Assembly: GCA_034231615.1 (NCBI GenBank)
Contig: CM067298.1
Coordinates: forward strand, 35,718,127-35,782,126
Direction: 5' to 3'
DNA from: Meghimatium bilineatum
Lineage: Eukaryota > Mollusca > Gastropoda > Stylommatophora > Philomycidae
DNA: 64,000 bases
The notes beneath the pieces are model-generated. The model saw nothing but the letters and a program-made list of their open reading frames with translations. It was not told the DNA's origin and did not search any database. Positions 1 to 58,206 of the stretch are shown piece after piece. A program made the position numbers and the translations under genes. Each line of letters opens with the position of its first letter. Position 1 is the first letter of the stretch.

Positions 1-62
1 GCGAAGTGGTACAGAGCGCGTCTGTGATGGCAAAGTTACCGAGTTCGATCCTCACCACAGGC
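1..62 (+). repeat. tRNA-like head of a SINE
   Basis: The first 60 bases look like a tRNA-derived promoter: an A-box-like stretch (GCGAAGTGGTACAGAGCGC) followed by a B-box-like stretch (GAGTTCGATCC). This is the usual head of a tRNA-derived SINE. The left part is cut off by the window edge, so the repeat's extent is unknown. A true tRNA is unlikely because no acceptor stem can be closed. Confidence 0.35.
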
Positions 63-1384
63 AATTGTGCATCCGGACCGTTCAGAAAGCAATGGCAACC
101 TACTGAACGTATTTATATTGCCTAGAAAATCACCACAGCCAACAAATGCTGGGTTGATAGCTACGTCCTGGATAGGATATGCTACCAATTTTTTTTTAAC
201 CACATTAAATTGTCTGACCACTACACTTTGTGATTGTCCAGTCTGTAAGTGTCCAATGATGAAGTATCACTTTTCTGTAGTGAGATGAGCCATATTTGTG
301 CATTGAATTTTCAATTGAATTTATTTGAAGACCGTCAACTTTTATAGGCATTCAATAATATGGTAGGAGAGTTTTGTGTTCAGTAAGTTTCATGGGATTC
401 TCATGAACCTGTCATGAGTTATTGCCAAAACTGTTGTTTTAACCTTGACCTCTTTCATGTCCCCACGAATCATGAGGTGAGTACAATTCAGGTAACCATG
501 AGAAGTTAATGACCAGGTGACACAGTCGATAGGTTGAATGATTCCCATTCATAATGTTGTCAGCATCACACCTGCCACCTTTACTTTCTCAGAAGATTTT
601 ACCCATTTTCTTCGGCTGGGTTGGTCTAGTGATTTTAAAATAATTTTTAAAAGTGATTTTTGGGTTAGTGATTTTAAAATGATTTATGGTTTAACTTAAA
701 ATTAACTCTTGGATTACCCAACTAGGAAGCCAGTTCACTAATAACTGAGCTACCACAGCCTAAAATGAAAACACAGTCATACATTACTTAATGGCTATGG
801 TGATGCCTTTTGGCTGGGAGCAGACCTCCATTTTTAAAACAGTATAGAAATGATGTCTTGTTACAAAGATACTCATCTCATAAAAGTGAATTGTTGAATC
901 TTTGAGCCATTCACATATAAGATAAACATCTTTAAACAGACACAAACACCTCAAATCTATTTCTACTGATAGTGCATTTCAGGATACTCTCCGCAGATAA
1001 TGGATATGCAAATTTAGAAAGGGAATAAAAATATATGTCGAACCATTCAGCTCATGCTATATTTGATAAATTACATCATTACTGAAGAAACATGTCTGTT
1101 GCTGCAACAATGAAATATGAAGGTCCTCTACACTGTCTTGAAGATAAAATACAGTAAGACATGTTACAGCTGTACATTGTATCAATTTAAGTGGCAAAAA
1201 TCTGTCAAGATTCAACAATTACCCGGTATACATTTTCAGGACTATTTTTCAAGACTGCAAATTACTGGCCACCCATGTAACCCATATGAATGAACTTGAG
1301 CCCAATACTTAATTAAAACATCTATACAGCATCATAACAACCCACACATAAAATCAGTAAATATGTCATTTGTCATCAAGCAAA
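63..1384. other. No recognised gene or repeat
   Basis: AT-rich non-coding sequence. Only short open frames with no family resemblance are present. Exon 1 of NMRK, which should encode about ten residues ending in GISG, was looked for here and up to 5640 and was not found. Confidence 0.4.
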
Positions 1385-1545
1385 TATATACGGTTGTGAG
1401 TCATGGAATTAAATAAAACAGTAGCAAAGAGAATCGCTGCTTCTGAAAACAGATCCTACAGAAGAATTTTATGTATACCATGGACAGCTAAAAATACAAA
1501 TCAAGAAGTATTAAGACCAATAAACGCTTAAAAGTACTGACTCCT
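1385..1545 (+). mobile_element. LINE reverse transcriptase C-terminal fragment
   Basis: The translation reads YGCESW, then after a frameshift RSYRRILCIPWTAKNTNQEV. This matches the conserved block after the RT domain of non-LTR retrotransposons (YGCESW...RRMLRIPWT...TNEEV). The copy is broken by stops and frameshifts. Confidence 0.65.
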
Positions 1546-1644
1546 TAACAATTCCATAACAAGAAAGCAGAGTTTTTTTTTGTCATATAAAGAGACATAA
1601 CAGCATGGAAAGATTAATAGCCGAAGGCAGTAGTTAAAAGTCAT

Positions 1645-1975
1645 ATGACATGCCTTTATATTGAGGTTATCTTCTTATAGAAGCTTCATTGCATGTCATC
1701 TATACAATCCCGTAGTCGTAACCTTCGATAACAGTTACCATGTTGTTCTGACAGGCCGACATTGTGCTTGAACTAGTTATGGGCGCAACGTGGGTGGGCG
1801 GAACAACAAAGAAACCTGTCGCAAGGGCCAGAGTTGTGCCCTGATGTCGACGTCTGTTTCAGCAGCATTAGACGCGAAACACCATCAAGTCGGATGACTG
1901 CTGGAACAGAGGGCGGAGCACTTATGGGAATGCCCCACGTGCTGTGAGGCCAGTTTCTAATCAAGAATGCCCATT
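1645..1975 (+). repeat. 3' tail repeat of an RNase H LINE, copy 1
   Basis: This segment is the reverse complement of 9250-9590 with few differences, giving a long inverted pair that flanks the first NMRK exons. Its right end (TTTCTAATCAAGAAT) is shared with the 3' ends of the LINE copies at 45782 and 52970, so it is the 3' end of the same LINE lineage. A short hairpin around GAAGCTTC lies near the left end. Confidence 0.6.
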
Positions 1976-2029
1976 CAGCGAAAATCTTTATAAAAATAAC
2001 TCCCAAAAAGTTGTTTCTTTTTTTATAGA

Positions 2030-2225
2030 TAAATACTAAATAAAGTATACAGGTTACCGTATATACCTAACTATAGATATGAAATAATAATAAATAACAA
2101 TAAAACATAGAACAAAGACAATTATCAACGTGTCGGTCCTAACAGGACCTTTATCAAGAAACAAATAACGATTTAGAAAATGAAACCGTAAAATTTATAA
2201 CCAAGATGACTGGATAATGGTTTCC
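2030..2225 (-). repeat. Penelope-like terminal repeat piece with hairpin
   Basis: On the - strand, a GGTCC/GGACC hairpin sits inside TTGATAAAGGTCC and GGACCGACACGTTG. Related copies lie at 37934-38360 and 39040-39150. The arrangement resembles the hairpin plus GAAACGT motif seen at 55008 and 60479. No protein is encoded here. Confidence 0.4.
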
Positions 2226-2229
2226 TCAC

Positions 2230-2995
2230 CCAAAATCATTTGGGTAATGATACTAGGCAATGACAAAAGGGACAACAAATTTAGCCCTGGCCCAACTCTG
2301 CTGTCAAGCTTTCCTAAACTGGATATACACTTGCAGAGAGAAAGGGTTCCGTACATGATGGGATTTTAGCCCTGGCCCAACTCTACTGCCAAGTTTTCCT
2401 ATACCGGAAATACACGTGCAGAGAGAAAGGGTTCAGTACTCGATGGGCTCAGGCGCTATTGGGACAAGGTCGCTCAGCTCGAGGACGCCTTGCTCTCAAA
2501 CGCGTGGTGTGACAATGTCTTTGCTCACAATGTCTTTGAACGACACCTCGGGTAGGAGGGCGAACGAGCCAGGGTCCAACTCCTTCTGATGAGTTCTTCC
2601 TCATGCGGAACCAGGCTCGCGGATAAGAAACGGTTCAGTACCCAATGGGCACAGGCACAGTACGTCCAACTGTATGAGGTGAGTTCATAGACGGTGGAAC
2701 ACCTCGTGCGAGATAGACGTGGGCGATAATTGTCTAGACGAAGAGTCACTACACACCTGCAGCCCGGCGACAGATAGACAGGCTGTCACGGACTAGGGAA
2801 GCCTACCCGAATTAAAGGCATGATGAAAACGGATGTGCTGAACCTCAAGTGGCCAACCGAAGTGCACATAACACAGTTCTACTATGGAACTTGCAGCACA
2901 ATGTACTTCACGCTCCCTGGCGGAAATTACACAATATATTCATTGTGGTTATATGAGAGCGAATGCAGAAGAAGAAGAATATATGCAGAAAACAT
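2230..2995 (+). mobile_element. Long non-coding retroposon, truncated copy
   Basis: This is related to the inner and 3' parts of the full copies at 52984-54182 and 21108-22176. It contains the internal modules ending in AGAGAAAGGGTTC...GATGGG twice, then the junction CCCGAATT, then the SINE-like 3' module beginning near 2825. It ends in a GCAGAAGAAGAAG tail. The 5' part of the family is missing. Confidence 0.6.
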
Positions 2996-3240
2996 TATGC
3001 GGAATGTACAATCAGACCTACATTATGAATACTTTCATCCTCTCAATATCAGAGGTCATAAGATTCCAGAAAGTAGGTACACAGATGACACCATCCTTAT
3101 ATAAGGAAGGCCCACAGGTCTAGAACACGTGATTATGTCAGTACAAAAATTACAGCAAGGCACGAAGATCAAAATAATGCTTATCAATAGAGATGGACTC
3201 AAACATACAAAAACTTTTGACAACGAACCACTGGAAAATG

Positions 3241-3795
3241 TCAACAACTTTGAATGTGCGGATCAACCATTAATATCTGTATGTCCATCTGTATGTCTGT
3301 GGGATTGGGTGTTAGTTGGGTGACTTGTCCCTGAATGTCATTCCTGATATAAGTAATTATGCCACAGCAGTTGGTACACTTACAGGCATAGCTGATATAT
3401 CCTGACAGATATGGGTCAGTGTCTTTGTGTATAGTCTCCTGTAAGAGGGCCACATGTATCTTATGAGCATGTAGTAAATTAGCGAGCTCTAGTGTTTTGT
3501 TTCTTATTCCACAGATGTTCAGTTGTAGAATATTAAGTGTAGACTTTGTTTTATGAAAATCTTGGCTCTGTTGGTTCTCCCTCCAAGGTTTTCTGGGTTT
3601 AATGTTTTGATGCTTGTGCAGGTGTTGTTGCTGTGTTGTGTATTGTGCATGTCTGTGTTTGTGCTGATGTTTTGGATGCGTTCCAGTAGTTAATTTCTCA
3701 GACAGAGCAGCCTGGTTACCCACTGCCTGCCGCGGACCTTGATAGCCGAGGCGACGTCCGATCTCGTTTGTAATTAGTATGTTTTGTACTGGCAT
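3241..3795 (-). pseudogene. LINE endonuclease (EEP) N-terminal fragment
   Basis: The 184-residue frame runs from a basic, glutamine- and histidine-rich leader into LNILQLNICGIRNKTLEL and HVALLQETIHKD. This is the start of an apurinic-type endonuclease domain of non-LTR retrotransposons (first motif LQxNxxG, second motif with the catalytic E in QET). Only the N-terminal third of the domain is present; the frame stops before the reverse transcriptase. The fragment belongs to the same LINE as the 5' region at 3800-4190. Confidence 0.75.
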
Positions 3796-4190
3796 TATAT
3801 TGCTGGGGAGTCTGTGGATTTTTGTCCCACCCCAGGACAGAGAAAAACTATCACACTACTAGGAAGGAAGGTTTCAACCTATGAACTGCTCCGAGCCACT
3901 GCAGCCAAGATAGGGTTCACTGTGCTCATTCCCCGCCACCAATTGACTACTGGTTATGCCGAACTTCTCTTGCTCCAGGCATGCAACCAAATGTTCAAGT
4001 CAAAAGGATCATCACGTCCTGAGTCAGTGTGCCTCTATGATGGACCTCAGCCATAGGAAAAACAGTGCTGTCAGTTTCCTCCTCCCCACTGCTGCGCAGC
4101 AAATCTCTAGCTCTCTCCCAAACACAGAGGGTGCATACATAAACAAAGAAAAATAATGCAACATGGCATAAAATACATTGTAACAAAAAA
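3796..4190 (-). mobile_element. LINE 5' region
   Basis: The reverse complement matches 49500-49900 over most of its length, including the stretches GACTCAGGACGTGA and GAGCACAGTGAACCC. It lies directly upstream of the endonuclease frame, so it is read as the 5' untranslated region or first frame of that LINE. Confidence 0.55.
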
Positions 4191-4194
4191 TTTA

Positions 4195-4370
4195 AAGTAT
4201 GAGAGGCATAATTGTATAGATGACATGCCATGAAGCTTCTATAATAGATAACCTCAATATAACGGCATGTCATCTACTTAGGTTTTTCTGTTGCATGGGT
4301 GGTTTGTCTAATGGGCCATTGGTGAGACCCACAGACGCAAACCATGCGGACAGCCTAAATTAAACATGAA
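4195..4370 (-). repeat. Repeat related to 9510-9660
   Basis: Shares the hairpin block around GAAGCTTCTATAA and the run GGTGAGACCCACAGACGC with 9510-9660. It appears to be a shorter copy of the element at 1645-1975 and 9250-9660. Confidence 0.5.
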
Positions 4371-4374
4371 GTTT

Positions 4375-4965
4375 GTAATTCCAATTGTAGAAGGTCTGAG
4401 GGTTTTACTATTGGTCTATCAGACCAACTGTTATACAATAGTATCACATTATGTCTCAGTAGATTACATGCCAGGAGTTTTTTCTGTTTTCCACATTTTG
4501 CAAATCACACTGGGGGAACCAGAAGAGATCCAGCCCTGACCATGATCCCTGCTGCCATTGTGCATGTGGTACATGAGGGCGTGGTAAAAAGCAATGCTGT
4601 GCAGGATGTGAAATTCTCTCTAAGAACCCAGAATCCAGCCAACATATTAACCCTGCGTAATTAGAGAGCCCCTCGGATGGCAGGGAATGAATAGCTGGCT
4701 GCCCAACCTATTTCAGTGACCACGGTCCAGAGCTGGGTTTCTGTGGATACTTGGCAAGATAGAATGTATGGCAGGGGAAATGAAGCCCATGACTCTAACT
4801 CTGCATTTTGTGGAAGGGTAGAAAAGTCACAAGACCCCTAGAATTTACCCCCTCTGAGTAGGTGACCTCTTCACAAAGCATTGCACTCTGCTGAGTCTTC
4901 TGGGTATGAAATGAAGCTCAGGAGAGACATTTCCATTGCACACAGGAAGTAATAGCTTATCTCTC
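4375..4965. other. No recognised gene
   Basis: Moderately GC-rich non-coding stretch between two repeats. It may be more LINE-derived sequence, but no second copy was recognised in the window. Confidence 0.3.
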
Positions 4966-4969
4966 ATTC

Positions 4970-5250
4970 TTCTTCTTCTGCGTTCGTTCTCGAACTCCTG
5001 CAGATTAGCAGGATGTAGTCCGGAGAACGGAATGTGTTGTGTCATGGTTTACAGCATTGCTGCAATATCTGCGTCTTTCGACCCCTGACACATCCGACTT
5101 CAGCGTGGCTTTGGGTCACTGACCCTATATGGGATGGGACAGCCAACTCCATCCCATAACCTCCTTAGTCGTCTTTTACGACATGCGTGGAAGGTAAACA
5201 GTGTTGCTATTCTTTGTTCCCCTTTCGGGCCCTGGCAACACACGGGCGTT
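4970..5250 (-). mobile_element. SINE, GAA-tailed family, near-complete copy
   Basis: Read on the - strand, it starts with a head containing GGGGAACAAAGAATAG, continues through GTCGTAAAAGACGACTAAGG, a palindromic GGGTCAGTGACCC block and GAAGTCGGATGTG, and ends in GAACGAACGCAGAAGAAGAAG. Copies of parts recur at 5757, 6783, 9115, 19710, 26680, 32060, 50740, 54200, 61180 and 62930, making this the commonest repeat in the window. The GTCGTAAAAGACGACTAA block is, from memory, widespread in invertebrate SINEs. Confidence 0.7.
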
Positions 5251-5649
5251 ATCTCTCATAATTCCTAGGGATTGATAGAACAACAAATCGGTAATTTGAT
5301 TCCAAATGTAAATGTAAAAACAGCTCTAGTGTGTGAGGATTGACATTATTGAACTTAGATTTCCCATACTCCATCCTTCTCAAATAAGCACCTTCCAAGA
5401 TTACCATTCATATCACGTAATTCTGTAGCTTCAAGCAATAATTCTGAAAAATGCACTTGTAAACTAGACATCACAACTCAGATTTAAACCCGCGACCTCT
5501 TGATCACAGGGCAAATGGCTTTACCATGATGCCAGGAAATCAATATGGGCATGTTCAATGAAACCTGATAAATTCTGAGTAAAATACTGTTTGTTAGCAT
5601 TTATGTTAATGAGTACATGTATTGAAAATGTTACATTTTTCTATATTAG

Positions 5650-5740
5650 GGCCACAAACAGTGGAAAAACAACTATCAGCTCCATGTTGTGTAGAGTTTT
5701 ACCTCATTCAGAATGGATTAGTCAGGATGACTACTTTTTG
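5650..5740 (+). CDS. NMRK: NMRK exon with the P-loop
   Basis: Acceptor TATATTAG at 5649 and donor GTAAGA at 5741. The exon opens with one base completing the previous codon, then reads ATNSGKTTISS and SEWISQDDYFL. The P-loop binds ATP phosphates, and the Asp pair in SQDD includes the presumed general base. Human NMRK1 has TNSGKTT and SQDDFF in the same places. The exon ends in phase 0. Confidence 0.93.
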
Positions 5741-8700
5741 GTAAGATAATTATTTTTTGGCATTTATTCTCAAACTCCCACCAGATCTATCTTATAGCAG
5801 GACAATGGTTCTACAAGATTTCCAGCAGGATGTAGCCCAGAGAGCGAAAGCGCATTTGTGTCTTCGTTTTATTTGTGCCAATGTCCCAGCACATCCAACT
5901 TTTACATTTGGTTTGATTGATTGTGGATTGTTTATGAAGGAAATATCTGTAACATGATGCTATTGAGATCACATTTTGTTACATACATTTGAAAACTGTC
6001 TGTAAAACAGGATCAGTTATCCCTTATGGTTTTGGGAGTCAGTATAGGGAAGCTAATCTTGATAATCAATGTTGTGTTCATTTCCATGTACTTTAATTCT
6101 CTTGTCTCCCAAATTAAAATAGATACCTGGAATTTCTAAATTTCTAGAAAATTCTAAATTGCCTTCCAGCTATCATACAAATGCTCTACCTCTGACCCTT
6201 TAGCAAGCTTAAATGTTTTATTCACACGTCAATCAGCTGTCATTTACAATGAATAGTGTGTGCCTTATTTTTTTTAACAATCTGCACTACTGCTTTCATT
6301 TGTGTTGAAAAACTTTCCACACAAACATTGTTTGCATTGTATGTTGCATTCATATTTTAAAAAGCTCGGAAAATTTTTCATCTTCATGACACTTGATTAG
6401 AAACCTAGGAACATTCCTATAAACGCTCCACTCTTCATTCCAGCAGCTATGATCCAAGAGTATGCAGACTCAAAGTCCCAGTCAGATGTTAATTATGTGA
6501 TTTTAACTTTCTAGAGGGGACACACTTTCTTCCCTCACCCCTGGTTATGCACCATATTTTTCATTCTTCTTATGAGACATTATCACCTCCAGCACCGCCT
6601 TCTTCACTCTGTAGTAAATTAATGACCCATTGAGCCAGAAAACCATTATTTGAGTCTATAAGTGCAAGAGACCCATCAGTAGTAACACTCTTAGGCTTGT
6701 GAATTGCAATTTTGTCAGAAATAAGTAACTTCTTTAATCCAAAATAAATATCATCTCCCTAGTATGACTTTTCAAAGGAATCAATTTCAACAAGTCTGAC
6801 ACAGCCGAAGATACATGTTGGACCATTGGCACAATAAAACAGTGACACAGAGCATTTCCATTATTTGGACTACATGCTGCCGGAAATCTAGTAGGACCAT
6901 TGTCTGCTACAAGAGAGAACTAGTGGGAGTTTGAGAATGGATGCTGAAGAAGAATACATCTTACAATAAATGGTAACTGAACAATGCTAGTTAATATGTC
7001 AACTAATTGTGCCTACTCGTAATAGGATACCATGGCTAATCAGAACTGTAAAACTATTCTGAAATTAGCATTCCTGACAGGATGAATGGAAGATGCTAAA
7101 GAATAAATGTTTTTCTTTTTAAAACCACTATAAAAAATGAAAATTATATAAAAATAATGTAAACAAATGGATGTGAAATTTATCAGGTATATGCTCCTTT
7201 ATATCTTGCAGCATCAGGGGTTGAAGAGTTCTCTGGAGTTTGCTTTTTTGTGTGCTTCATATATGTTTGTTTCGTGGACTCTTTTATTTCTGTAATCTAT
7301 CTTTTGCTTGGTCTGCTCCTGACTTTCTATCCATCGTGTTCGTATAGCAATGCTTTTTGAGGGGCACTATCTGATGGTAGTCTGGAAGCATGTAAAAACC
7401 ACTTAATCTTTTGTCTTCTGATGTGATCCAGGATCAACATTGTGTTTGTTAGTCTTCTGATGTTTTCATTTCTGATTGTCTCTTATTGTTACTCTGAGAA
7501 TTCTACAAAAAGTCATTTTTGTTGTAACTATTTTTTTTGTTGCTTTTGTTTTTAAGTGTCCACATCTGACATTGGTAGCATAGTGATGGTATGATGATCA
7601 TTTATATAGTACAGTTTTGATGTTCATGTTCAAATGTTTGGTTTTGAAAATAGAAGTCATCTGCAATATTATGTGTTTTTGTTGGTTAAATATGAGAAAA
7701 CCTTCAACAATAAGAATTGATGTCATGTGTTATTCTGCTGTCATCTGTTTCATTCTTCAACATCCTTCACCATCCAATCCATCTCTAATTATTAGAAATA
7801 GGTATAATAGAAAAGGAAACAAAAGTAATAAATCAACATAAAATTGTTTATGATATTATAGGACATATCTAAAAATGACATAGCATTGTTTGCTTCCATG
7901 GTTCCAAATTGTTATACATGACTAATATTGGACAAAATACTATAGTAATTGATTGCAGAAGAAGAAATTGAGTTACCAGTGATTTTTTAGATTGAATACA
8001 TTGTTGCTTAAAAATGTATATTTTCTTACAGTATGTTTGTTTCATTTGTGTTCTGATTTGTGCAAACTAGAGCTCACAATTGCACTTTCTTCTTTCTTTT
8101 CTTTCTTTTAGGCACCAGATGACCCAAATGTAGAGATGAAAGATGGATATCAGAATTGGGATAGTATGTTATTATTAATAGCTTTGTTATCTTGAAAATA
8201 TAAATGAAATTCAAAGAATTAATGTCATTATACTCTAGGTATACCCTTGTTCTCTGGCTGTTTCAGCAGATGGGTAGGGGTCTGCATACTGATTGTCACC
8301 ATAGCTCACTGGTTATGTATGTCTAATTCATCATAAACTCCTACCAAATGCATGTCATGTGTGATTTCAAAATCTCATAAGTAGATTATGCTTTTCATAT
8401 TTATATTTATTTATCATTCTCCGGACACCAGTAGCATTCATGTGAAAGGAACATCTTATCTGTTGTAGCTCACATGCAGACTATAACTTGTACCAGTCTT
8501 TATTTTTTACATTACTCCAAGCATATATAGTATCTTCACAATTGCTGTGTTTGTAACTCAGTCAATGGCTATTACATGTGTTACAATTGGTGTGTTTGTA
8601 ACTCAGTCAATGGCTATTACATGTGTTACAATTGGTGTGTTTATAACAGTCACAACTTTCTTTCTTGATAAACACCAGATGGTTGCATTGTGACCTGAAT

Positions 8701-11700
8701 AGTGTGAGGATGCCATCTATAGTCAACGGTGGATAGAACCATCTGTACTTTAATAATAATAATAGCATCTATCTCAAGTTGAAAAATCCATTGTTATGTA
8801 TTTATGCAAGACTATTCCTGTGTGGTGTATATATGAGAAACTAAAGAAGCTTTATAATGAGAAGCTTCAATTTGTTTGGTTTGTCAACATTTTGATCATT
8901 GAACTAAACCTTAACTATAAAATTGTCCACAAAACAGCACATAACATAAATGTGATGTTTTTTCATCTTATGATACTCTTGTGCTACTCTCTGGTGTGTA
9001 TCTTTCACACTTTAATATAGTCACAGTATAACATTGCCCAACTATAAAATTATCTTTAGAGGGTGTGTTTGCTTGGGAGTTGGCATTGTTCAGTAAGCTG
9101 GTTTTTGGTACATTCTATTCTTCTGCTGGTTAGCAGGATGTTGTCTGGAATACAAAGTATACTGCTTCATGGTTTACGTCTTGGCTGTTATCTGCACTTT
9201 TAGACTGATAATCTGACTTCTGCACATTATTTTTGGGTACATATTGTCATCTCCTTGATTCTTGATTAGAAAAACTGGCCTCACAGCACGTGGGGCATTC
9301 CCATAAGTGCTCCGCACTCTGTTTCATCAGTCATTCAACTCGATGGTGTTTCTAGTCCAATGTCGCTGAAACAGACGTTGACATCAGGGCACAACTCTGG
9401 CCCTTGTGACAGGTTTCTTTGTTGTTCCGTCCACCCATGCTGTGCTCGTAACTAGTTCAAGCACAATGTCTGCCTGTCAGAACAACATTGTAACTGTTAT
9501 CGAAGGTTACGACTACGGGGTTGTATAGATGACGTGCCATGAAGCTTCTATAAGAAGATAACCTCAATATAAAGGCATGTCATCTACTAAGGTTTTCTGT
9601 TGCATGGTTGGTTTGTCTAGTGAGCCATTGGTGAGACCCACAGACACAACCGCATGCGCGAATTACTTGATCATTACTCGTAGACCAGACTGCCTTGTAG
9701 TTCTGGTTTGCTGACTTTGATATTAGCAGTCAATTAGAAAACATGGGTGACATCCTAAAAAGCAAAGATGAAAGCTATTTGAACATTTAATGAGAACGAG
9801 CCCTGCAAGGACATACATCCCTTATTTGGGTGCCAAAGATGAAAAATGAAAATGATGACTCAGAAAAACATGGAGACATGATGGAAAAATGAAGCACAGA
9901 TTTCTGTTAAGGAACAGTGCATTAAATATTTTTAGATGGAAATATATGCCTCATGTGGCACTAAGCATGGTTAAGTAGTACATGTACACACACACACACA
10001 CATAATGAAATAACTATCAAATCTGCCCAAGAGCCAACTACACATCATTGGTAATCCTAGTAACAGATTGTCGCATTCATTCTGTCTAAATGAGTGAGGA
10101 TTTCAAAGAGAGGACATTTTTTAGCATACAAAATTCCTTGCTGAAATGTAGTCTGACTCCATCTATCAATGCAGACCCGAATTTGGGTGCTGAGATGTTT
10201 TATCGAACCGATTCTTTTTTATGGATGTGAAGCATGAACAAGAAAATTCAAAGTGAATTGGAGGCTACAGAAATGTGGTTTCTGAGAAGAATGATGAAAA
10301 TTCCATGGACAGCCAAGAAAACTAATGCTGAGGTTCTCATTGATGCTGGCGTAAAAAGATCAATCATATCAAACATTAGAGGCAGACAGTCAAGGTTTCT
10401 AGGGCATGTGCTGAGAAGAACACAGCTTGAACACTTAATAACCACTGGAAAAATCAAAGGGAGAATAGATAGAGGTCGACAAAGAGAAAAATTACTAGAT
10501 GGGCTTGTATCGTGGCATGGTAGAAGCTCACCAACCGAGCTTATTGACAACACAAGAGACAGAGAGTCGTGGAGAAACATGATCGCCTATGCCAGTCGGC
10601 ATGGCACTTGATTGATTGATATGTATGTAGTACAGATATCAATCAAGTTGTAAACTGCAATACAATACGTTTTAGGGCAAACAAAGAAGAGAAATCCAGA
10701 TTTCAGAAAAAAGTTTGTCCTAAAATAAGTTTTTTAAATCTTAGTTTCACATTTTTATGTTTTTTTTCCAGCACTCAGTTCATTAGAGATGGATAGGATG
10801 GTGAGGGATGTTGAAGAATGGATCAGACGACAGCAGAATAACACAGTGAAATCAATTCTTATTGTTGAAGGTTTTCTCATATTTAACCATAGGTAGTAAC
10901 TTTGAAATCTTGAAAATGTAGCCAGAAAGGCAGACTTATGTTATAATTATTCTAGATAAAGATGTATTACTTAGGTTTCAAGGGCTGTTTACTAATTTCT
11001 GAACCATATTCTATTCTCAAATACTTTAATACTTAGTATTGTGGCACAGTGAATTCCTCTATAGCACATTCTTTTATAACAAATTTTCCTATATAACAAT
11101 TTTCAACATCCCCAATTATATTTATTCTATATTGTTTGTACTGTATATAGCAAATGTCTGTTATTACATACATATTTTGTTGGTCCAGACCAAGTTTGTT
11201 TAATGGGATTTCACCGTATTAACCTGATGCATGTGAGAACAACGTGCCAATGTATGTACCAAACAGGAAATCAGTAACATTGCACATGCGTGCTATATGC
11301 AGACAAACTGAATAAGTAAAGGACAAAGACAAGCCTGTAATCAAGTTAAACTTTTAGCAAGCCCATTTAAAATTACGCATTCTTTCCCCAGCCACCTGGG
11401 TTTTTTTAAATTTGTGTTATTTTTGATGGGTGTTTTGAAAACACAATAACGTTTTTATTTTGATAGGTTTTGAAATAATTTTTTGCACGTGTAAATAAAG
11501 AATTGCATACTGCAAATATGTGTATTTTTTTGTTTGTTGGTATAATGGTGTGAGAAAGTGGTAAAGATGTTTTTTTCACAAAATAAAAAAACACAAACAT
11601 GGGTGTTGCTGTTTGGAGAGTGCAATAACTTTATTGTTTTTAGGGATTTTAAAATATTTGTGCATGTAAATAAATAATTGAATACTGCATATATTAGTGT

Positions 11701-14292
11701 AATTTTTGTTTGTGTATGTGTGATAAAAGAGGTGTGAGAAGGATGTAAGGTTGGGAAAGGAATTTAAAAAAAATTATACAATAGTTATTTACCCTTATTT
11801 TATGAAGTGGCAACCCTGATAACACACCTAAGTCTATTGTATGTATGTTGTTTCATAACCAAACTAACATAATATCGCTAGGGACATAAATAAAACATGT
11901 AGATATAACTTACCTTGCCATAGAATCGTTATCTGGATATAGACCTATTCTTTGTCGGTAACAACGTCATTACATTAGGTCTATGGACTTACATAATGAA
12001 ACCATCATGTTACTACTATATATATATATATATATTTTGAAATAACACATTTTCTCAAGAATTCATCATCAGAATCACAATCCATAATGATGTTACTGAA
12101 AATCCTATAAAACCTAGGTCTATAAAACCCGATTCGCGCTGATCTGGACAGATCGCTAGGATTTTAAAATTACATCCATGCCGAAATCGGATGTGCTAGG
12201 TCTACAAGGCGCATAACGGTGGCACAACGTAACCACGCTCCTGGCGGAAATCACATGGATATCCGTGATGGTTACAATGGAGCGAACGCAAAACAAACAA
12301 CAAAATTACATCTCCCCTATTCTTCACTCATGCTAACAAAATGATGAAAATGGAAGTCTAATTGAATAGCTAGCTGTTTCCATCGCTAAATCAATGCATA
12401 GCAACAGGTGCCTTTTGTCGCCAATGGTTGTAAATGACTGAAAAACCATTGGCTACCATAGGTACCAATGGCATGCTAAAGGTTAACTTGCTGATGACAG
12501 ATTTAGATGGGACAAGTTTTTGGATGACGTATGCTTTAAAGGATTAAATCATCCTTGTTCTACATTCCTGATTTACTCTACATATAAAATGATTTTGCTG
12601 TATATGGGGTACTAGATTGATCTGTTTGGGAAGTACTAAGTTTATTACTTAAATTTTATTGTCTCATCAACATGTAGCATTATTTATATGTTTCAGTGAA
12701 TTGGTGTCATTATTAGAGAAGAAGTATTTCATAACAATTACCAAAGAGGATTGTGTAGAACGAAGAAAGTAAGTAGAAACACATTGCTTTCTTTTTATAC
12801 TTAAAAAATACACAAATATGCCAGGACTTAGCTAAGACTTTCATACATGCACAATTACCGGTAGTTAGTCAATAGATGTCGGTCATCATCATTGTGCTTC
12901 GTACACATCCATAGGTGCTCTGATCTGCACTTGAGTGTATCCACTATTATATGATGACTGACCTTTAGTTCTCTGTTGGTTGACAAACATTTTATAAGAC
13001 CATAGTAGCGCTTATTTCTGGCAACTCCGCATTTAACACTTTGCTCACCAGCAATCCAGAGCGTACTTGTCCGCTATTACCGAGGGTGCACGCAAAATTT
13101 TATACATTGACATCGTCGTTTTTAAAAATTCGTATAAAATCGATCTAGCGTAAAAAAGCCTTGAAGCTTTCTATGTGTTGTAACAACTGTTTGCAATTTC
13201 TGAATGAATTTGAAATCTCCAGAGTTATTTCAAGTGAAAAATGCTACTTATCATAATGCTAGGCCTAGATTTACATTAATTTCTATATATATCATACAAT
13301 ATTTCCATCGAAATCTCCAATATTGATAAAAAACACATACTATGTCTATATCGTTATTCCTGACATCCGCTATTTTTACAGAACATAATCTCACGGAAAC
13401 ACTATTTTTAGCACATTATTGCAATGGGTATTCCCATTTTTCTGATCTATCATAGCGCATTCGACTAGCGTCAAAATTGGTCAGCAAAGTGTTAAAATTC
13501 AACTCCTTTATTCCCGACATAGTAAAGGAATTATCACCCTCAACAGTTCATTTGACCGTGTTGGATACCAACTTTGTGTTACCATTGTCAAACATGGCCT
13601 TTGAAAGATGCTAGTAAAAAAAGATCAATGTGTTTGAAAATAGATATTTGAGGAAAGCCAAATATAACCTATAAATGTCATCAGAAGAAACTGACGGAGA
13701 AATGAAGAGGTAAGGAAAGAAATTAAGACCATAGAGAGACAGCAAACCAGGTGGTTTAGCCGCATCATGAGAGTGGAACCAACACAACTGGCCCTTCATG
13801 CATACAACAGCAGATAATTAGGCTACAAGACATAAGGAAGACCAAGAACTAGATAGGTGGAGACAATCAAAGAAACCGTAAAGATACATGGGCCTACAAT
13901 GGTCAATGCTACCCCAAAAGGCCAAAGACAGACAACTCCAACTTTCCCTCATGACACTTAATAGCACAAGTGGAAATGACAATAGATAGATAGTCCATAT
14001 TGTTTCTTGTAAGGCATGTGCTTTCTTTTTGGCCCCAGCAACATAAGGGCAGCTGATTCCTGTTTGTTAATTTCTCAGTCTTCTTACATTGCAATTGATG
14101 TTGCAATTAGATGGCTCATTGTGGTCTCACAAGTCTTTGAGGTCTTGATTTTTGTGACTACATATTGGCTTGAAAAAACACTACTTTTTGTTACTGCCTT
14201 TCTAAATATGTATACAACTGAAGTTTTCAATGCTTGTGAAGTTACTGTCAGCCATTTCTGTACAGTGTTGTCCATGTCTTTATATATATATA

Positions 14293-14323
<31 letters not shown>

Positions 14324-16050
14324 CTGAAGTACATCTGACAGTTTTAATTATGATTTTTATTCCAATCTAGGCAAAGGGTATATAACCCTGCAGATACACC
14401 AGGATACTTTGACCAAATTGTTTGGCCATCTTATGTACAATACCTTGATAGCCTGCAGAGCCGGAATGATATAGGTAAAAAAATCATGTCAATGGCAGGT
14501 CTTGATAAAAAGATATTGGACTCATTAAGCAAAAGTGCAATAAAAATTGAGTTTTATAGTGGGCTAGTTATCTAAAGTTTTGATTCCGTAACAATATTTT
14601 TCTCTTGATGTCGCAAGTGTGTTTATTCTGATGACATGAAATGCAGAAGTATATGAAGAATGGAAATGTGAAGAAATGTTTGCTATACCCAGTTTAAACA
14701 ATAAAAATAATGGGATTTATTAAAGTGTTGTTAAATGAGAAGATTTGTTAAAGACATTATAGAAAGACTCCACTGTATAATACTTCTTAAAGCTTTACAA
14801 AAATGTATATCTTAATAATTTCAATCTTAATCATTCAGGAAAAACTCTGGGCGTAATTCCCAGAGCGAGGGGAATAACTCTGCACAAATCAGAAGTGATT
14901 ATGCAAGAAAATTAACGTAAAATACAATTTGCAATCAATTTTTATGATTCAGTCCAATTAACAGATAAATGAAAGAGGTACTGAGCTTTGTGAATGTCAT
15001 GTAAGATAAGTTTACTTGTTATGTAACATGCGAAAGGAAAAAAAATGAACACCAGTTTCATGTCAGCTTCATTTACTTGTGTCAATTTGTTTGCTGATAA
15101 CTGTTCAAATGAAAGCTGCAAAGCAAACTTCCTTGCACAGCATGACAACAAGTCTGTAACTGTTACTACTCCAGTCATATAGTCTTAGTTCACATAAAGA
15201 AAGACCTAGATATCTGGTGAAACAGGGTTCCAAAACGGATCTTGTTTTTCTGAAAATTTTGATACCGGCATACTGTGCATATTCCCAAAGAATGACTCCC
15301 GTAGAAATAGTGAAAACTATGCCTAGTCTCAAAAGCAGAGTAAGCTTGATCAATGTTGTTTGTAGGACCTGATTTCTCATGAAATTGATCATTATTGGCA
15401 TAGATCAGCTGTATTGACTATTCTCAATTATTACTAGTTATATCTGTCACTTGTTAGTGTTTATTTTTTAAGTTTAGCATTACAGAAATAATTTAATACT
15501 CCTAAACTAATGCAAAGTGGTAAAAACAAATTTCTAGGAAGTTACTTTATTCAAAAGTGGATTGCATTAACATTGATTAAAATGGATTGCTACTTATTTC
15601 TACTTCATGTTTCAGGCAAGGCAATTAATTCCATCAATTCCCATTGCATAGTTTATGCTAAACAATGTCCTATACAGAATATGCTTTCAATTATTATTAT
15701 TATTATTATTAGGTAACAGAACTCACATCAGGTTAAAATTGGATGTGCTGGGCAGGAAATTGCAAATAAACTAGTTGCACAACATATTTCTCTTCAGAAA
15801 TCACATGAAATTTTGTGTCGTTCATCAGAGAGCAAACACAGAACTAATATTTGGCACGGTACTGTTTACATACAGACCAAAATTAAAGGATATAATGATT
15901 TTTATGTTTAGTAACAATAAGAAGCAAATGCCTGTTTTATTTTCAGAATATATTGATGGTCATACAGATCTAGAAACTATTGGCAAAACAATTTTGAGCA
16001 AGATTGAAGCTGCACTTCAGAAGGAACCTGTTAATGAGATTGTGCATTGA
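5650..16050 (+). CDS. NMRK: Nicotinamide riboside kinase gene (span of six exons)
   Basis: The product phosphorylates nicotinamide riboside to NMN with ATP, feeding cytosolic NAD synthesis. Exons: 5650-5740, 8112-8163, 10772-10892, 12697-12768, 14371-14474, 15947-16050. All have AG/GT borders and compatible phases, and together give about 180 residues plus the missing start; the human protein has 199. Order of motifs: P-loop ATNSGKTT, SQDDYF with the catalytic Asp, LIVEGFLIFN, the lid arginines in ERRKQRVY, then PADTPGYFDQIVWPSY. Exon 1, with the start codon and the first glycines of the P-loop, was not found and may lie left of the window. No frame breaks are seen, so the gene looks functional. 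It converges with ANKLE1. NMRK1 and NMRK2 cannot be told apart here. Confidence 0.93.
5757..5915 (-). mobile_element. SINE fragment 16 bp behind a splice donor
   Basis: Matches the 3' two thirds of the SINE at 4970-5250 (CATTTATTCTCAAACTCCC through ACATCCAAC). It begins only 16 bases downstream of the NMRK exon donor at 5741. Confidence 0.6.
5916..6782. other. NMRK intron sequence, nothing recognised
   Basis: AT-rich intron without a clear repeat or open frame. Low-level similarity to repeat tails near 6420-6540 was not strong enough to call. Confidence 0.35.
6783..6965 (+). mobile_element. SINE copy, GAA-tailed family
   Basis: Runs from ATGTTGGACCATTGGCAC to GAATGGATGCTGAAGAAGAA, matching 19710-19890 in the same orientation and 5757-5915 in the opposite one. 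Confidence 0.6.
7195..7610 (-). mobile_element. LINE C-terminal fragment
   Basis: The - strand translation contains RNENIRRLTNTMLILDHI, RRQKIKWFLHASRL and later RSRPSKR followed by an ITEIKE-like stretch. This fits the C-terminal region of a non-LTR retrotransposon (WxGHxxR... RGRPxxRW... IKE). Stops interrupt it. It lies about 75 bases downstream, in the same direction, of the inverted NMRK exon copy. Confidence 0.5.
7684..7789 (-). pseudogene. Inverted copy of NMRK exon 10772-10892
   Basis: The reverse complement of these 106 bases matches 10782-10888 with about seven differences, including a perfect first stretch of 38 bases, so about 93% identity by eye. The match stops close to the exon borders: intron sequence on either side of the real exon is not copied, and the first ten exon bases and the last four are missing. 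A one-base deletion shifts the frame. It sits in the intron between the P-loop exon and exon 8112-8163, in antisense orientation to the gene. Confidence 0.85.
8112..8163 (+). CDS. NMRK: NMRK exon, loop after the catalytic Asp
   Basis: Acceptor CTTTCTTTTAG, donor GTATGT at 8164. Reads APDDPNVEMKDGYQNWD plus one base. It matches the human segment KPESEIETDKNGFLQYD in length and position. At 52 bases it is short, and is recognised by phase and by its neighbours. Confidence 0.88.
8538..8648. repeat. 45-bp tandem repeat, about 2.4 units
   Basis: The unit beginning ACAATTGGTGTGTTTGTAAC starts at 8538, 8583 and 8628, so the period is exactly 45 bases. The first two units are nearly identical and the third is partial. 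It lies in an NMRK intron. Confidence 0.85.
9115..9245 (-). mobile_element. SINE fragment
   Basis: Diverged copy of the GAA-tailed SINE: TTCTTCTGCTGGTTAGCAGG, then the block ATCTGACTTCTGCA. It directly abuts the repeat at 9250. Confidence 0.45.
9250..9660 (-). repeat. 3' tail repeat of an RNase H LINE, copy 2
   Basis: Reverse complement of 1645-1975 with an extension to 9660 shared with 4195-4370. It contains TTGATTAGAAAAACTGGCC at the left end, which is the LINE 3' end read backwards. Confidence 0.6.
10195..10615 (+). pseudogene. LINE reverse transcriptase C-terminal fragment
   Basis: A 125-residue open frame (from 10234) reads LEATEMWFLRRMMKIPWTAK, FLGHVLRRTQLEHLITTGK and RGRQREKLLDGL. 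This is the C-terminal tail that follows the RT domain of non-LTR elements. Homologous tails lie at 22540-22850, 51640-52100 and 61444-61820. No palm motif is present, so it is a 5'-truncated insertion in an NMRK intron. Confidence 0.85.
10772..10892 (+). CDS. NMRK: NMRK exon with the LIVEGFLIFN strand
   Basis: Polypyrimidine acceptor TTTTTTTCCAG, donor GTAGTA at 10893. Reads LSSLEMDRMVRDVEEWIRRQ, then SILIVEGFLIFNH. Human NMRK1 has ILIIEGFLLFN here; the block carries a conserved Glu of the kinase core. An inverted copy of this exon lies at 7684-7789, so the transcript could fold back on itself. Confidence 0.93.
10893..11345. other. NMRK intron sequence, nothing recognised
   Basis: AT-rich sequence. 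A short stretch near 11060-11215 resembles 22850-22945 and 23210-23300 and may be an old repeat. Confidence 0.3.
12016..12036. repeat. (TA)n microsatellite
   Basis: About ten TA units inside the TTAA element. Confidence 0.9.
12175..12310 (+). mobile_element. SINE module M (AAAC-tailed)
   Basis: Runs from ATGCCGAAATCGGATGTGCT through GGATATCC to GGAGCGAACGCAAAACAAAC. The same module forms the 3' end of the long retroposon (54060-54182 and 21108-21235) and part of 61821-61940. It is nested in a TTAA element. Confidence 0.7.
12697..12768 (+). CDS. NMRK: NMRK exon before the lid
   Basis: Acceptor TATGTTTCAG, donor GTAAGT at 12769. Reads ELVSLLEKKYFITITKEDCV then ERR, with AA of the next codon. 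Matches the human stretch SYFLTIPYEECKRRR; the arginines belong to the mobile lid over the active site. Confidence 0.92.
13037..13491. mobile_element. TTAA-flanked MITE, family A copy 1
   Basis: TTAA at 13033-13036 and 13492-13495 bound 455 bases with inverted ends CACTTTGCTCACCA and TGGTCAGCAAAGTG. The next bases, CAATCCAGAGCGTACTTG, recur reversed at the right end of 17538-18001. No coding capacity. Confidence 0.78.
13640..13960 (+). mobile_element. LINE C-terminal fragment
   Basis: Reads RQQTRWFSRIMRVEPTQLAL, then, past a stop, GRPRTR, matching the C-terminal signature of CR1/RTE-like LINEs. Stops and frameshifts are present. It lies in an NMRK intron. Confidence 0.65.
14281..14323. repeat. 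(TA)n microsatellite
   Basis: About 20 TA units with one phase break, 50 bases before an NMRK acceptor. Confidence 0.9.
14371..14474 (+). CDS. NMRK: NMRK exon with lid and substrate loop
   Basis: Acceptor TTCCAATCTAG, donor GTAAAA at 14475. Reads QRVYNPADTPGYFDQIVWPS then YVQYLDSLQSRNDI. The human counterpart is RVYQPPDSPGYFDGHVWPMY. The PGYFD segment is a hallmark of this kinase family. Confidence 0.94.
14475..15946. other. Last NMRK intron
   Basis: Mostly unrecognised AT-rich sequence. A short (ATT)n tract lies near 15690-15712, followed at 15730-15790 by a weak SINE head (AAAATTGGATGTGCTGGGC). Confidence 0.45.
15947..16050 (+). CDS. NMRK: NMRK last exon
   Basis: Acceptor TTATTTTCAG at 15946. 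Reads EYIDGHTDLETIGKTILSKI, then EAALQKEPVNEIVH and TGA at 16048-16050. The human end is VVYLDGTKSEEDLFLQVYED. An ATTAAA signal variant near 16233 is a possible poly(A) site, but it is weak. Confidence 0.92.
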
Positions 16051-16299
16051 GAACAACAAACTGTCATATATTAATATGAAATAAGTTTTCAGGGACTTTT
16101 AAAGAAATAATTTATTATGATTGTAAACATTGTTTGTTACCATTCATTCATTTCTGTAGATTTTTATGTGTTCTGAACCATTACCACCAATTTCAGGTTT
16201 TCTCCATTCCTTTTTTGCTTCTGTCACAACAAATTAAAAATCAATATCTTTTTCAAATTGTTATTTCTATTTGACTTTATCAATTAATTGAGAACCCCA

Positions 16300-16430
16300 G
16301 GAATTGCAATCGATTAGCTCTTACTTCCTATATGCAGTGGGGTGGTTTTTCTGAGCTTTCTTTCATGCCCAGGAAACTTCAGCTTTCGGCTTAGTGCAAT
16401 GCCTATTGAAGGAGCGTTCTACTCAGAGAG
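16300..16430. repeat. Short repeat S, copy 1
   Basis: Resembles 22975-23105 and 39220-39345, both reversed: AATTCCTGG-like end, a GCAGTGGG...GGTTTTTCTGAG block, and a CTTTCGGCTTA block. It is about 130 bases long and non-coding; its type is unknown. Confidence 0.5.
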
Positions 16431-17060
16431 TGATGATTGACTTTATAAATCGAGAAAAAAATTAGAATATCTGGGAGCAAATATAAACAGTTAGGAGATT
16501 GTTCAGTTTAGATTAAAAGAAGACTCACAATGCAACACTCAAATTAACACAGATGTGAAAACTGTGGCAAAGTAGTACCGGTAATAATGACACTAAAATA
16601 ACCCTTTTAAGCTCATTTGTTTTTGCCAGTGGCAACATATGGATTTGAGACTTGGACTTTAAAAAAGACAATATCCAGAAGAATAAATTCATTTAAAATG
16701 AAGTGCTACAGAAAGATATGGACAGAGAAAAGAACATTGATATTTTGAAATTACTGAAACTAAAACTTAGTCATGGGTGGTTTCTAAATACCGTTATAAG
16801 AAGGAAGCTAAATTATTTTCGACACTTAAAGAGACATGGTATCAAAAGGCTCATTCTGGAGGGCAGAGTGCCAGTATAGAGAATAAGACGAAGAAAATGA
16901 CGGACCAGCGACATCGAAGATTTCTATGAGCTTGTCTCTGGTCAATGTAGCTCTGCTTGCTCGGGACAGAATGTTCAGAGTTTTCCACATTGAAGACAAC
17001 ATCCTGGAAAGAATATGTGGATCATTACAGTCTATTGCGTCCACATGCACGTGACTACAG
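16430..17060 (+). mobile_element. LINE RT thumb and C-terminal fragment
   Basis: Reads PVATYGFETWTLKK, then ISRRINSFKMKCYRKIWT, and further on HGIKRLILEGRVP. This is the post-RT region of a LINE, decayed by stops. Confidence 0.65.
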
Positions 17061-37800: not shown

Positions 37801-40800
37801 GTTCTGTTTGTATGTTATCAGCATCTGCTGCTTTATTGATTGGTGCTTTGTTTATTGCATTTTCTATTTCCAATATTAGTATATTTAGTTCTAGGTTTGC
37901 TGTTGTTTATTGTTGTACCTTCTTCTCCTTCCTTAGTAATGCAAAATAAGTTAAACAGGTTACTAGAAAAACCCACCTATAAATAAAAATAGATAAAAAG
38001 TATATAAAAAACATATAATAAAACAAAAAAAAGGACAATTTTCCATGCATTGGTCCTAATGGGACCTTTTTCAAGAAACTAATAATGTTTAAACTAAACA
38101 AAACCACACAACATTTATAACTGAGTTGACCAGTGGATGTTTCCCTTACGTAAACATATTATGTAAATTCCTTAAGCATTATCAATTTTGTGTGATTTTG
38201 TTTAATTTAATTATTAGTTTCTTGAAAAATGTCCCATTTTGACCAATACGTGGAAAATTGTCCTGTTTTATTTTATTGTATGTTTTTCTATATAGGTACT
38301 ATACTTTTTTTATTTATAAGTAGGTTTTTCTAGTAACCTGTTTAACTTATTTTGCATTACCATTTGTTGTTTGGTTACTGCAGTACCCTCCACTTTGTTG
38401 GACACCCTCCGACCTTTTGGTTATTTATATTCTCCTTCCTTAGTATCCGTAGTTTTTTAAAATATTGTTGCCATCTTTCCATTATTTGTTTCCGTTCTTC
38501 TAGTGCATTACTGTTTTCATCATTTATTATTTCTGTTGGTTTGGATATATCGTCTTTGTTTCTCATGTTCTTAATTTTCTTGTAGAACATCTTTTTTGTG
38601 TATTTTATAATCTGCGTTGAACATGTCTTCATATTCTTTCCGTGAGTTAATTTTGACAGTTATAATAATTTTCTTGACATTTGTTTTTGTTGTCTTGTAT
38701 TCTATATAATCTACTTGGTTTTTACTTTTAACCCAATTCTTATATGTTTCTTTTCTCTTCTGATTTCTTCATTTCATCATTCTGTTATTTTTAATTTCCT
38801 TTCACTGTTGTTCTTGCATCCGCATGATTCTCCTGCTGCTTGTGTAATAGTGTCTGAATAATTTTAATTCTTCTTCTGTTGTAATATCTGCTGGTTTTCA
38901 AATTTTTCTGTGATTTTGTGTGTGTATTGCTCCTGTACCAAGTTGTCCTTAAGTTTGTGTATTTTAATTTGTGTATTTTCAATTTAAACTGATTACTAAT
39001 ATAACTAACAAATAGCAAAAATAATGCCAATGAGAAATAACAATAAACAAAGGAACAAGAACTTTTTCCACATTAGTCCAATAGGGACCTGTATTAAGAA
39101 TCAACAATGAACCAGAAATAAACTTAAATACAATGAGATGGTGTTACAAACACATATTGTATTTTTTCAGTGACTATAATACAGTATCATAGGTGTTATC
39201 CCTAGAATTTACCTATCTCAGTAAGACACTTCGTATCAAAGCATCACACACTGCAGAGAGTTAGTCTTCTTAAAATGAAATAAAGCTCTGCAGAAACCAT
39301 CCCACTGCATATAGGAGTCATAGCTAATTCCTGGGGAATGAAACAATGACATGCATGGCACTGTCACAGTGTTGCTACTTTTGCACCCCTTTCTGACTTC
39401 TGGGGCCTCACAATGAAGCTTTATTTAAGCATATTTTACATTTGATAACTCTTAGAACTATAAACATATACATACCTGGGCATTTTTTAGACAAAATCAC
39501 AAGACCAGGATTAGACTCCAAAGTTGTAAGACGTCTGAGATAGGCTTGCCGTGTGGCTGGTATCACTGGGCCAGGGATTTCTCCATACTTCTGCAGCTTC
39601 TGAGAGATCTCTTGGCATGTCATTCTTTCTAGATGAGCTGGTATAATCACATCAGCAGTGCTCTCATCATCAGCTGCACTTCCATTGTATTGTTGAACAT
39701 TTTCAGATGAAAACTCATCAGGCTTCTTGCTCTGCACATTTGAAACATGTTTCTTAAGACAAGAATTGTCAGATTGGGAAGGAGTCTGGATTTCTTTTGT
39801 AGAATGACTATTGTCTGGCACTCTTGAGCAATGATGTTGTGCCTTTAGTTGTTCAGTTTTTAAAACTGCATTCAAAGCATGCCAGTCATAGATAAAAGTT
39901 GCCTGAGAATCTATTGTTTCCCTACTGCTTGTGCTGTCAAGTGATCTTCGGATAGAACTGTTACCGCATTCTGAAGGAATATGTTTCTCTATTAATGTAA
40001 TGTTTGCTTCCGTGTCCCTGTAAACATACTCCATTACTGATAGAGTACTGAATAAGCTGTCACTGGACAAACGTTTTCTGACTGAATAGGTCTCAAAGAG
40101 GTTGTTTCTCTCTGCAATTTCTTTACTTATCTGCTTTGTTGGTACTGAATGCTCATCCTTAAGTTGAGCATCACATTTTGGTTTAATCTTCATTTTATAC
40201 ACTCTAGATATAGAGTTAGTTTTATTAATATAGCTATCATCTGATGTCATTATGTCATCAGAGAGGACTAAGGTAGGTGATTTCCATTTTGAAAAATTTT
40301 CTTTTCTAATTGTTTTTCCTTCTGTAAATCTTAAAGATTCTCTGGATTCTTTTGCAGAATTAGTTTCATTAGTTTTTAATTCTTTTTCAACATCCTTCAG
40401 TTCATTGACATTAGTCATAGCATCACTATAACCTTCATCACATGTAGCAAATGTGTCAACAGAAGAATTGGAAGTATTTAGAGTTGTGTGTGCTCTCTCT
40501 ACTGGTATGCTATGCTGTTCAACCATAGTTTGTTTACGATTACACATGCTTTGCTTTTTCTGTTTATCAGAAATTTGAATACTATCACTTGCAACTATTT
40601 GAGAAAATTTGTCAGTCAAAATGTCATTATTATAATCATTAAAGCTGATATCTGACATGTAGTTTTGTACTGAAAGAATAAATTCAGCTACTCTTTCATT
40701 AGGGTTTAAGAATGATTTAGGCAAAACTTCAGCTATTTCTGTTGGCTTTAGAAAAGATTTTCTCTTAGGTATCTTGTGTTTTTTAATTTTAGTTTGGGAA

Positions 40801-57170: not shown

Positions 57171-57390
57171 TGTTCAAAGCGCGTCGTAAGAGGGTATCAA
57201 AATGACGCTGATATAGAAGGTGCCGAAAAAGGGCACCAGTGGAGAGTAAAGGGACAGGAAACGAATGCCGTGGCAGAAGGAAACAGACCCAGAACTACAG
57301 TCAAGGCATGTGCAATGGTAGGATGACTCAAGAGGAATGGGGGAGTCGGTTAATAGTAGGTGACTAGTTGATGTCATCAGACCACCAGGT

Positions 57391-58063: not shown

Positions 58064-58206
58064 AGACCACCAGGTCGTGGTCAGTGGAGGTCGGTGTGGC
58101 AGAAGACCTGATGGAATATAATGGAAGATGGATCAAGGTCACAACCGCAACGACAAGTACTTTTTAGGCTAGGTGTTAGAAAATGTGACCGGCCGCATAA
58201 ACCTAA

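What the first reader, a model, noticed from the sequence alone, without database searches (positions are those of the whole stretch)
7684..10892. Inverted copy of a single NMRK exon inside the NMRK gene
Bases 7684-7789 are the reverse complement of 107 of the 121 bases of the NMRK exon at 10772-10892, with about seven differences by eye. The similarity ends at the exon borders, so the exon travelled without its introns. The pre-mRNA could form a stem of about 105 base pairs with a 3-kb loop that covers the real exon and the exon at 8112. That could promote exon skipping, circular RNA, A-to-I editing or small RNA production. A LINE tail (7195-7610) lies just downstream of the copy in the same direction, so template switching during retrotransposition is a possible origin; this part is inference.
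Basis: partly seen in the sequence, partly recalled or inferred. Interest (0 to 1): 0.82.

Follow-up and report, generated by a model that had tools for sequence, protein, structure and literature searches.

The report
Inverted partial exon copy in intron
A gene for making the cofactor NAD+ carries, in one of its own introns, a decaying backwards copy of most of one exon; it is real and could fold the gene's RNA, but it looks like an ordinary local copying accident, with no sign yet of a function.

Summary
Bases 7683-7789 are the reverse complement of 10782-10889, inside the 121-base NMRK exon 10772-10892: 6 substitutions and one deleted base over 108 positions. A genome-wide search with the exon found two places, the exon and this copy, so it is not a dispersed repeat. 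Two details need correcting. The match stops 10 and 3 bases inside the exon borders and contains no exon-exon junction, so it does not prove that an RNA travelled. The loop holds only exon 8112-8163; exon 10772-10892 is itself an arm. The copy is broken (two stops, one frameshift), and all 6 substitutions would alter the protein if they lay in the exon. The nearby LINE tail is real but 74 bases away, and its relatives in 284 kb are divergent (68% for the longest match), so a joint template-switch insertion is not supported. Best reading: one local templated insertion during break repair or replication, now drifting. The arms can form 103 pairs, -164.7 kcal/mol, which could disturb splicing; nothing here shows that it does. 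The genome-wide search of the copy's flanks did not complete.

The parts
7683..7789 (-). Inverted partial copy of the NMRK exon 10772-10892 (exon bases 11-118), with 6 substitutions and a 1-base deletion; two stops and a frameshift
10772..10892 (+). NMRK exon (121 nt, AG...GT borders); source of the copy and second arm (10782-10889)
8112..8163 (+). NMRK exon of 52 nt that lies in the loop between the arms (read from the sequence and the frame; the recalled human NMRK1 did not pick it up)
7790..10781 (.). Predicted RNA loop of 2,992 nt between the arms
5650..5740 (+). NMRK exon with the P-loop (ATNSGKTT); the most upstream exon found
12697..12768 (+). NMRK exon
   Evidence: (weak, E 0.087)
14371..14474 (+). 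NMRK exon
15947..16050 (+). Last NMRK coding exon, ends at the stop codon (read from sequence and frame; not picked up)
7198..7608 (-). Divergent LINE fragment (frames on the minus strand resemble a reverse-transcriptase C-terminal tail, recalled motif, no family match made); near the copy but not adjoining it
7609..7682 (.). 74-base spacer between the LINE fragment and the copy; no other match in 284 kb plus seven other loci
10181..10621 (+). Abundant LINE 3' fragment (40 places scored of 4029 candidates; the 39 other than itself are 94-96% identical) 150 bases upstream of the exon

Best explanation
The feature is a one-off local templated insertion. While a break or stalled replication fork in the intron upstream of exon 8112-8163 was being repaired, about 108 bases were copied in inverted orientation from the exon 3 kb away, most likely from DNA (the gene's own transcript is the main rival template), and pasted in. 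The copy has since drifted as non-coding DNA, by about 6% with two stops and a frameshift. Shown: the copy, its orientation, its uniqueness, its broken frame and the lack of detectable intron sequence beside it. Predicted only: in the pre-mRNA the copy and the exon can pair over about 103 base pairs and hold exon 8112-8163 in the loop. Inferred: any effect on splicing is weak or tolerated, because losing either exon (52 or 121 nt) or both (173 nt) shifts the reading frame.
For: Two places in a 1.61-Gb genome, 3 kb apart in one gene; that closeness favours a local event over retrotransposition of an mRNA that could land anywhere. No other NMRK exon has a second copy above chance level in 284 kb. 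The flanks of the copy do not resemble the introns around the exon. All 6 substitutions are protein-changing in the exon's frame, two of them stops, so they most likely arose in the copy. No exact target-site duplication of 9 bases or more between 7101-7700 and 7776-7900. Precedent: in mouse Tbxt a 220-bp piece of intron 6 was found inserted in reverse complement at a designed CRISPR target site in intron 5, 949 bp away by the coordinates given (PMC10901737, section 9 and passages). Reverse-complement copying by template switching is described in PMC7954356 (passages).
Against: A 108-base piece taken at random from the 10.4-kb gene would lie wholly inside one of the six exons in only 14 of 10,294 positions (0.14%), against 1-3% for a spliced RNA of 544-1544 nt. 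No empty site from a relative is available, so neither junction microhomology nor a target-site duplication can be judged properly. The copy's flanks were compared only with 284 kb, not with the whole genome.
Confidence: 0.6

Rival explanations
1. Transcript-templated repair: a break in the intron was patched by reverse transcription of the gene's own partly or fully spliced RNA, which lay nearby, so the patch is exonic only.
For: The piece lies wholly within one exon, a priori 7-23 times likelier from spliced RNA than from genomic DNA. RNA-templated break repair is reported in human cells (PMC12065846, abstract and outline seen), and patches without target-site duplication, argued to come from RNA, are described as class 2 templated insertions (PMC5110952, part 1 of 4 and passages).
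Against: No exon-exon junction is present, so nothing in the copy requires RNA. The ends stop 10 and 3 bases inside the exon.
Confidence: 0.25
2. LINE-mediated chimera: reverse transcription of the LINE tail at 7198-7608 switched to NMRK RNA and inserted both together.
For: LINE fragment and copy lie on the same strand in the expected order, 5' exon copy and 3' LINE tail. L1-mRNA chimeras exist (PMC13174262, abstract and sections 13 and 20).
Against: A 74-base spacer separates them. The LINE's longest match in 284 kb is 68% identical over 425 columns; a 62-column piece matches at 76% elsewhere and the other relatives are weak. It is thus probably far older than a copy at 94%, but the genome-wide search that could date it did not complete. 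No exact target-site duplication of 9 bases or more found.
Confidence: 0.05
3. Selected cis-acting stem: the copy persists because pairing with its exon regulates splicing, editing or small-RNA output of NMRK.
For: Duplex of -164.7 kcal/mol, with all 103 pairs in the predicted fold of 7600-11000. In 120-base windows over 5650-16500 the best partners of the five other exons reach only -34.3 to -52.5 kcal/mol, against -154.5 for this exon. Two of 6 substitutions keep a G-U pair, and the last 39 aligned bases are identical. In mice an inverted pair around Tbxt exon 6 gave more exon-6-lacking than full-length transcript in homozygous E10.5 tailbud (PMC10901737 section 9).
Against: No RNA data. Four substitutions and one deletion disrupt pairing. 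All three predicted exon losses shift the frame. The clustering of differences is only nominally unusual (0.04). Neutral drift of a young copy explains everything seen.
Confidence: 0.06
4. Old inverted duplication of exon plus introns, in which only the exon part stayed alike through gene conversion.
For: It would explain why similarity is confined to the exon; the 39 identical bases at one end could be a recent conversion tract.
Against: Flanks show no residual similarity beyond shuffles as a whole, and no other NMRK exon is found on the minus strand above chance level. It needs repeated conversion over only 108 bases.
Confidence: 0.04

Closest known systems
Mouse Tbxt insRCS2 allele (PMC10901737)
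   Same: A piece of the same gene inserted in reverse complement into another of its introns within a few kb, with an exon between the arms
   Different: There both arms are intronic, 220 bp, and the insertion was at a designed CRISPR target site; skipping was measured. Here one arm is a coding exon, the match is 94% and RNA was not examined.
Template-switch mutations (PMC7954356)
   Same: Reverse-complement copying of a nearby template that leaves an inverted repeat
   Different: That paper treats short-range events inside one fork, seen against an ancestor; here the arms are 3 kb apart and no ancestor was seen.
Class 2 templated sequence insertions (PMC5110952)
   Same: Short patch without a detectable target-site duplication
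   Different: Those come from distant loci and are argued to derive from RNA; here the source is 3 kb away and an RNA source is unproven.
LINE-mRNA chimeric insertions (PMC13174262)
   Same: An exon piece near a LINE tail in the expected order
   Different: A 74-base spacer, apparently unequal ages, no target-site duplication of 9 bases or more found.
Drosophila hairpin RNA (hpRNA) loci (PMC10317233, passages seen)
   Same: An inverted repeat whose arm matches a gene
   Different: Those are transcribed hairpins making Dicer-2-dependent siRNAs against other loci; here the arms are 3 kb apart in the target gene itself and small RNAs are unknown.

Membership tests
Local templated inverted insertion | Inverted copy of a nearby unique sequence | tested here: met
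   2 matches from 2 candidates in the genome, 3 kb apart, opposite strands
Local templated inverted insertion | Junctions with microhomology or small added or lost sequence against the empty site | not testable with these tools
   No relative's genome held for this organism (statement)
Processed retrocopy | Intron-free exon-exon junction | tested here: not met
   Copy lies inside a single exon
Processed retrocopy | Target-site duplication and poly(A) | tested here: inconclusive
   No exact direct repeat of 9 bases or more between 7101-7700 and 7776-7900; repeats of 5-8 bases not tested. Beside the copy's 3' end the longest A run on its strand is 5 bases, by eye
LINE template-switch chimera | Exon piece joined directly to the LINE 5' end | tested here: not met
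   74-base spacer 7609-7682
LINE template-switch chimera | Same age of both parts | tested here: inconclusive
   LINE's longest match 68% in 284 kb against 94% for the exon copy; genome-wide copies not obtained
Exon-trapping reverse-complement pair | Arms that can pair, with an exon between them | tested here: met
   103 predicted pairs, exon 8112-8163 in the loop
Exon-trapping reverse-complement pair | Measured exon skipping | not testable with these tools
   No RNA data
hpRNA / endo-siRNA locus | Dicer-dependent small RNAs from the arms | not testable with these tools
   No small-RNA data
Dispersed repeat | Many copies in the genome | tested here: not met
   Two places found

The most novel reading that the evidence does not exclude
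The gene carries a built-in antisense arm against its own exon: nascent RNA folds the exon into a 103-bp duplex, so that NMRK output is set by a race between removing the upstream intron and pairing, with editing or siRNA as by-products.
Probability: 0.06. Interest if true: 0.72.

Novelty: new member of a known kind. Interest (0 to 1): 0.33.

Why it matters
If inert, it is a clean natural example of a short inverted local insertion taken from a coding exon and caught while it decays. If the stem acts, it would be a natural counterpart of the reverse-complement pairs shown in mice to cause skipping, with a coding exon itself as one arm, and it could be tested from RNA-seq of the species. The near-complete coverage of one exon also gives a concrete case for asking whether transcripts serve as templates in germline repair.

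Tried and rejected
Dispersed repeat: rejected, two genomic places. Exon of a decayed inverted paralogue: no other minus-strand NMRK exon above chance level in the window or in 284 kb (the protein search printed its best 30 rows). Retained intron homology beside the copy: flank alignments do not stand out from shuffles as a whole (anchored alignments, 12 to 278 of 300 shuffles reach the observed score; the lowest, 12 of 300, is the 120-base 5' flank, where 30 of 300 other gene segments also reach it, and next is 33 of 300 for the 250-base 5' flank, with 95 of 300 segments; local alignments, 90 and 180 of 200 shuffles). Structured RNA: no Rfam match at gathering score in 5000-17000. No tRNA or tmRNA in the window. 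The arms with their flanks, folded alone, are no more stable than shuffles: 175 and 197 of 200 shuffles fold at least as well. NMRK first exon: not found with simple patterns in the window start and up to 120 kb upstream (one search printed 3 pattern matches, none convincing). Background of local pairs: 13 low-copy pairs of 60 columns or more at 85% or more within 10 kb in 284 kb (self-search at E 1e-8, at most two self-hits), 6 of them inverted, this one included; whether the others are repeats elsewhere was not tested. Papers: 8 searches. Those aimed at this arrangement listed 15 of 77, 12 of 123, 12 of 67 and 10 of 12 papers, and none of the titles or abstract starts describes an inverted exon copy in its own intron; weak evidence of absence. 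A review of inverted Alu repeats (PMC11263572, passages) was seen for background only.

Full report
Setting. On the + strand, six exons (5650-5740, 8112-8163, 10772-10892, 12697-12768, 14371-14474, and 15947-16050 ending at a stop codon; AG before each and GT after the first five) join into a 180-codon open frame. Its best solved relative is nicotinamide riboside kinase 1 (2qg6, E 7.8e-33); Pfam gives only AAA_18, below its cut-off, and the exon alone gives no significant solved relative. The gene's first exon was not found by simple patterns, so the gene model is incomplete at the 5' end.

The observation. Positions 7683-7789 on the minus strand match exon positions 10782-10889: 107 bases against 108, with 6 substitutions and one deleted base, 93.5% identity. 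The local score of 179 compares with a maximum of 31 in 200 shuffles. A genome-wide DNA search with the whole exon returned two places, the exon and the copy. Two points need correction. The match begins 10 bases after the exon's start and stops 3 bases before its end. And exon 10772-10892 is an arm of the inverted repeat, not part of its loop; the loop of 2,992 nt contains only exon 8112-8163.

Direction and decay. In the exon's reading frame all 6 substitutions are protein-changing, two create stops, and the deletion shifts the frame. The copy is therefore the changed and non-coding member. All seven differences lie in the first 69 of 108 aligned bases (nominal chance 0.04), which may hint at conversion but is not strong.

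Borders and flanks. Anchored and local alignments of the flanks of the copy against the introns around the exon do not stand out from shuffles as a whole; the lowest count, 12 of 300 shuffles for the 120-base 5' flank, is matched by 30 of 300 other segments of the gene, and the local alignments are reached by 90 and 180 of 200 shuffles. No other NMRK exon has a second copy above chance level in 284 kb around the locus. Because the copied piece is shorter than the exon and crosses no junction, the lack of introns does not by itself show that RNA was the template. A random 108-base piece of the gene would lie within one exon in 0.14% of positions, against about 1-3% for a spliced RNA, so RNA stays a serious rival, while the 3-kb distance argues for an event at the locus.

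The LINE. The fragment at 7198-7608 is real and reads on the minus strand, the same strand as the copy; its frames resemble the tail end of a LINE reverse-transcriptase protein (my reading, recalled motif, no family match made). Its longest match in 284 kb is 68% identical over 425 columns, a 62-column piece matches at 76%, and a profile search adds four weak relatives. It is separated from the copy by 74 bases that match nothing else in 284 kb and seven other loci. A joint insertion by template switching would put the two side by side with like age. The evidence is against this, but the genome-wide search that would date the LINE did not complete in 21 tries. A second, abundant LINE fragment lies just upstream of the source exon (10181-10621; 40 places scored of 4029 candidates, the 39 others at 94-96%); I found no link between it and the copy.

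What it could do. The two arms form a predicted duplex of -164.7 kcal/mol, and all 103 copy-exon pairs appear in the predicted minimum-energy fold of 7600-11000. For comparison, in 120-base windows over 5650-16500 the best partners of the five other exons reach only -34.3 to -52.5 kcal/mol, against -154.5 for this exon. Both splice sites of exon 10772-10892 lie outside the stem, which covers nearly all of the exon's interior. In mice, an accidental 220-bp reverse-complement insertion within Tbxt gave more exon-6-lacking than full-length transcript in tailbud of homozygous E10.5 embryos (PMC10901737, section 9). Here the loss of exon 8112-8163 (52 nt), of exon 10772-10892 (121 nt) or of both (173 nt) would shift the frame, so strong skipping should be harmful. 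The simplest inference is that intron removal usually wins and the copy is tolerated. Editing, circular RNA and small RNA remain possible and untested.

Judgement. The copy is real, unique at the sensitivity of the search, and well described by a known kind of mutation: local templated insertion in inverted orientation. What is unusual is that the template is nearly one whole coding exon and that source and copy share one transcript. I rate it of modest interest, with a small chance of a regulatory role that RNA data could settle.

Noticed in passing
57176-59676: Large imperfect palindrome made of three nested inverted pairs (57176-57387/59464-59676, 58064-58189/59348-59472, 58381-58617/59076-59312; 86.5-93% identity); an RNase H-like LINE frame at 57372-58031 lies in and beside one side.
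   Followed up: no
1645-1968 and 9258-9583: Another inverted pair, 92% over 326 bases, with one arm in the NMRK intron before exon 10772; looks like a dispersed element, since related pieces occur near 45.7 and 52.9 kb.
   Followed up: partly
10181-10621: LINE 3' fragment of a very abundant family (4029 first-look candidates) inserted 150 bases upstream of the NMRK exon in the same direction, with a TTGATTGATTGA tail.
   Followed up: partly
39408-41171 (-): 587-codon open frame with a LEM domain above the Pfam cut-off (31.5 bits against 24): probably a large exon of a nuclear-envelope type gene.
   Followed up: no
1-5650 and 120 kb upstream: The NMRK first coding exon (before the P-loop exon) was not found by simple patterns; it is either distant or unusual.
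   Followed up: partly
L026 and L027 (window coordinates 97176-101227 and 105528-109573): A 4-kb inverted duplication at 98% identity, 4.3 kb apart, outside the window.
   Followed up: no
8538-8647: Short tandem repeat, 45-base unit, 2.4 copies, 96% matches, in the loop region.
   Followed up: no
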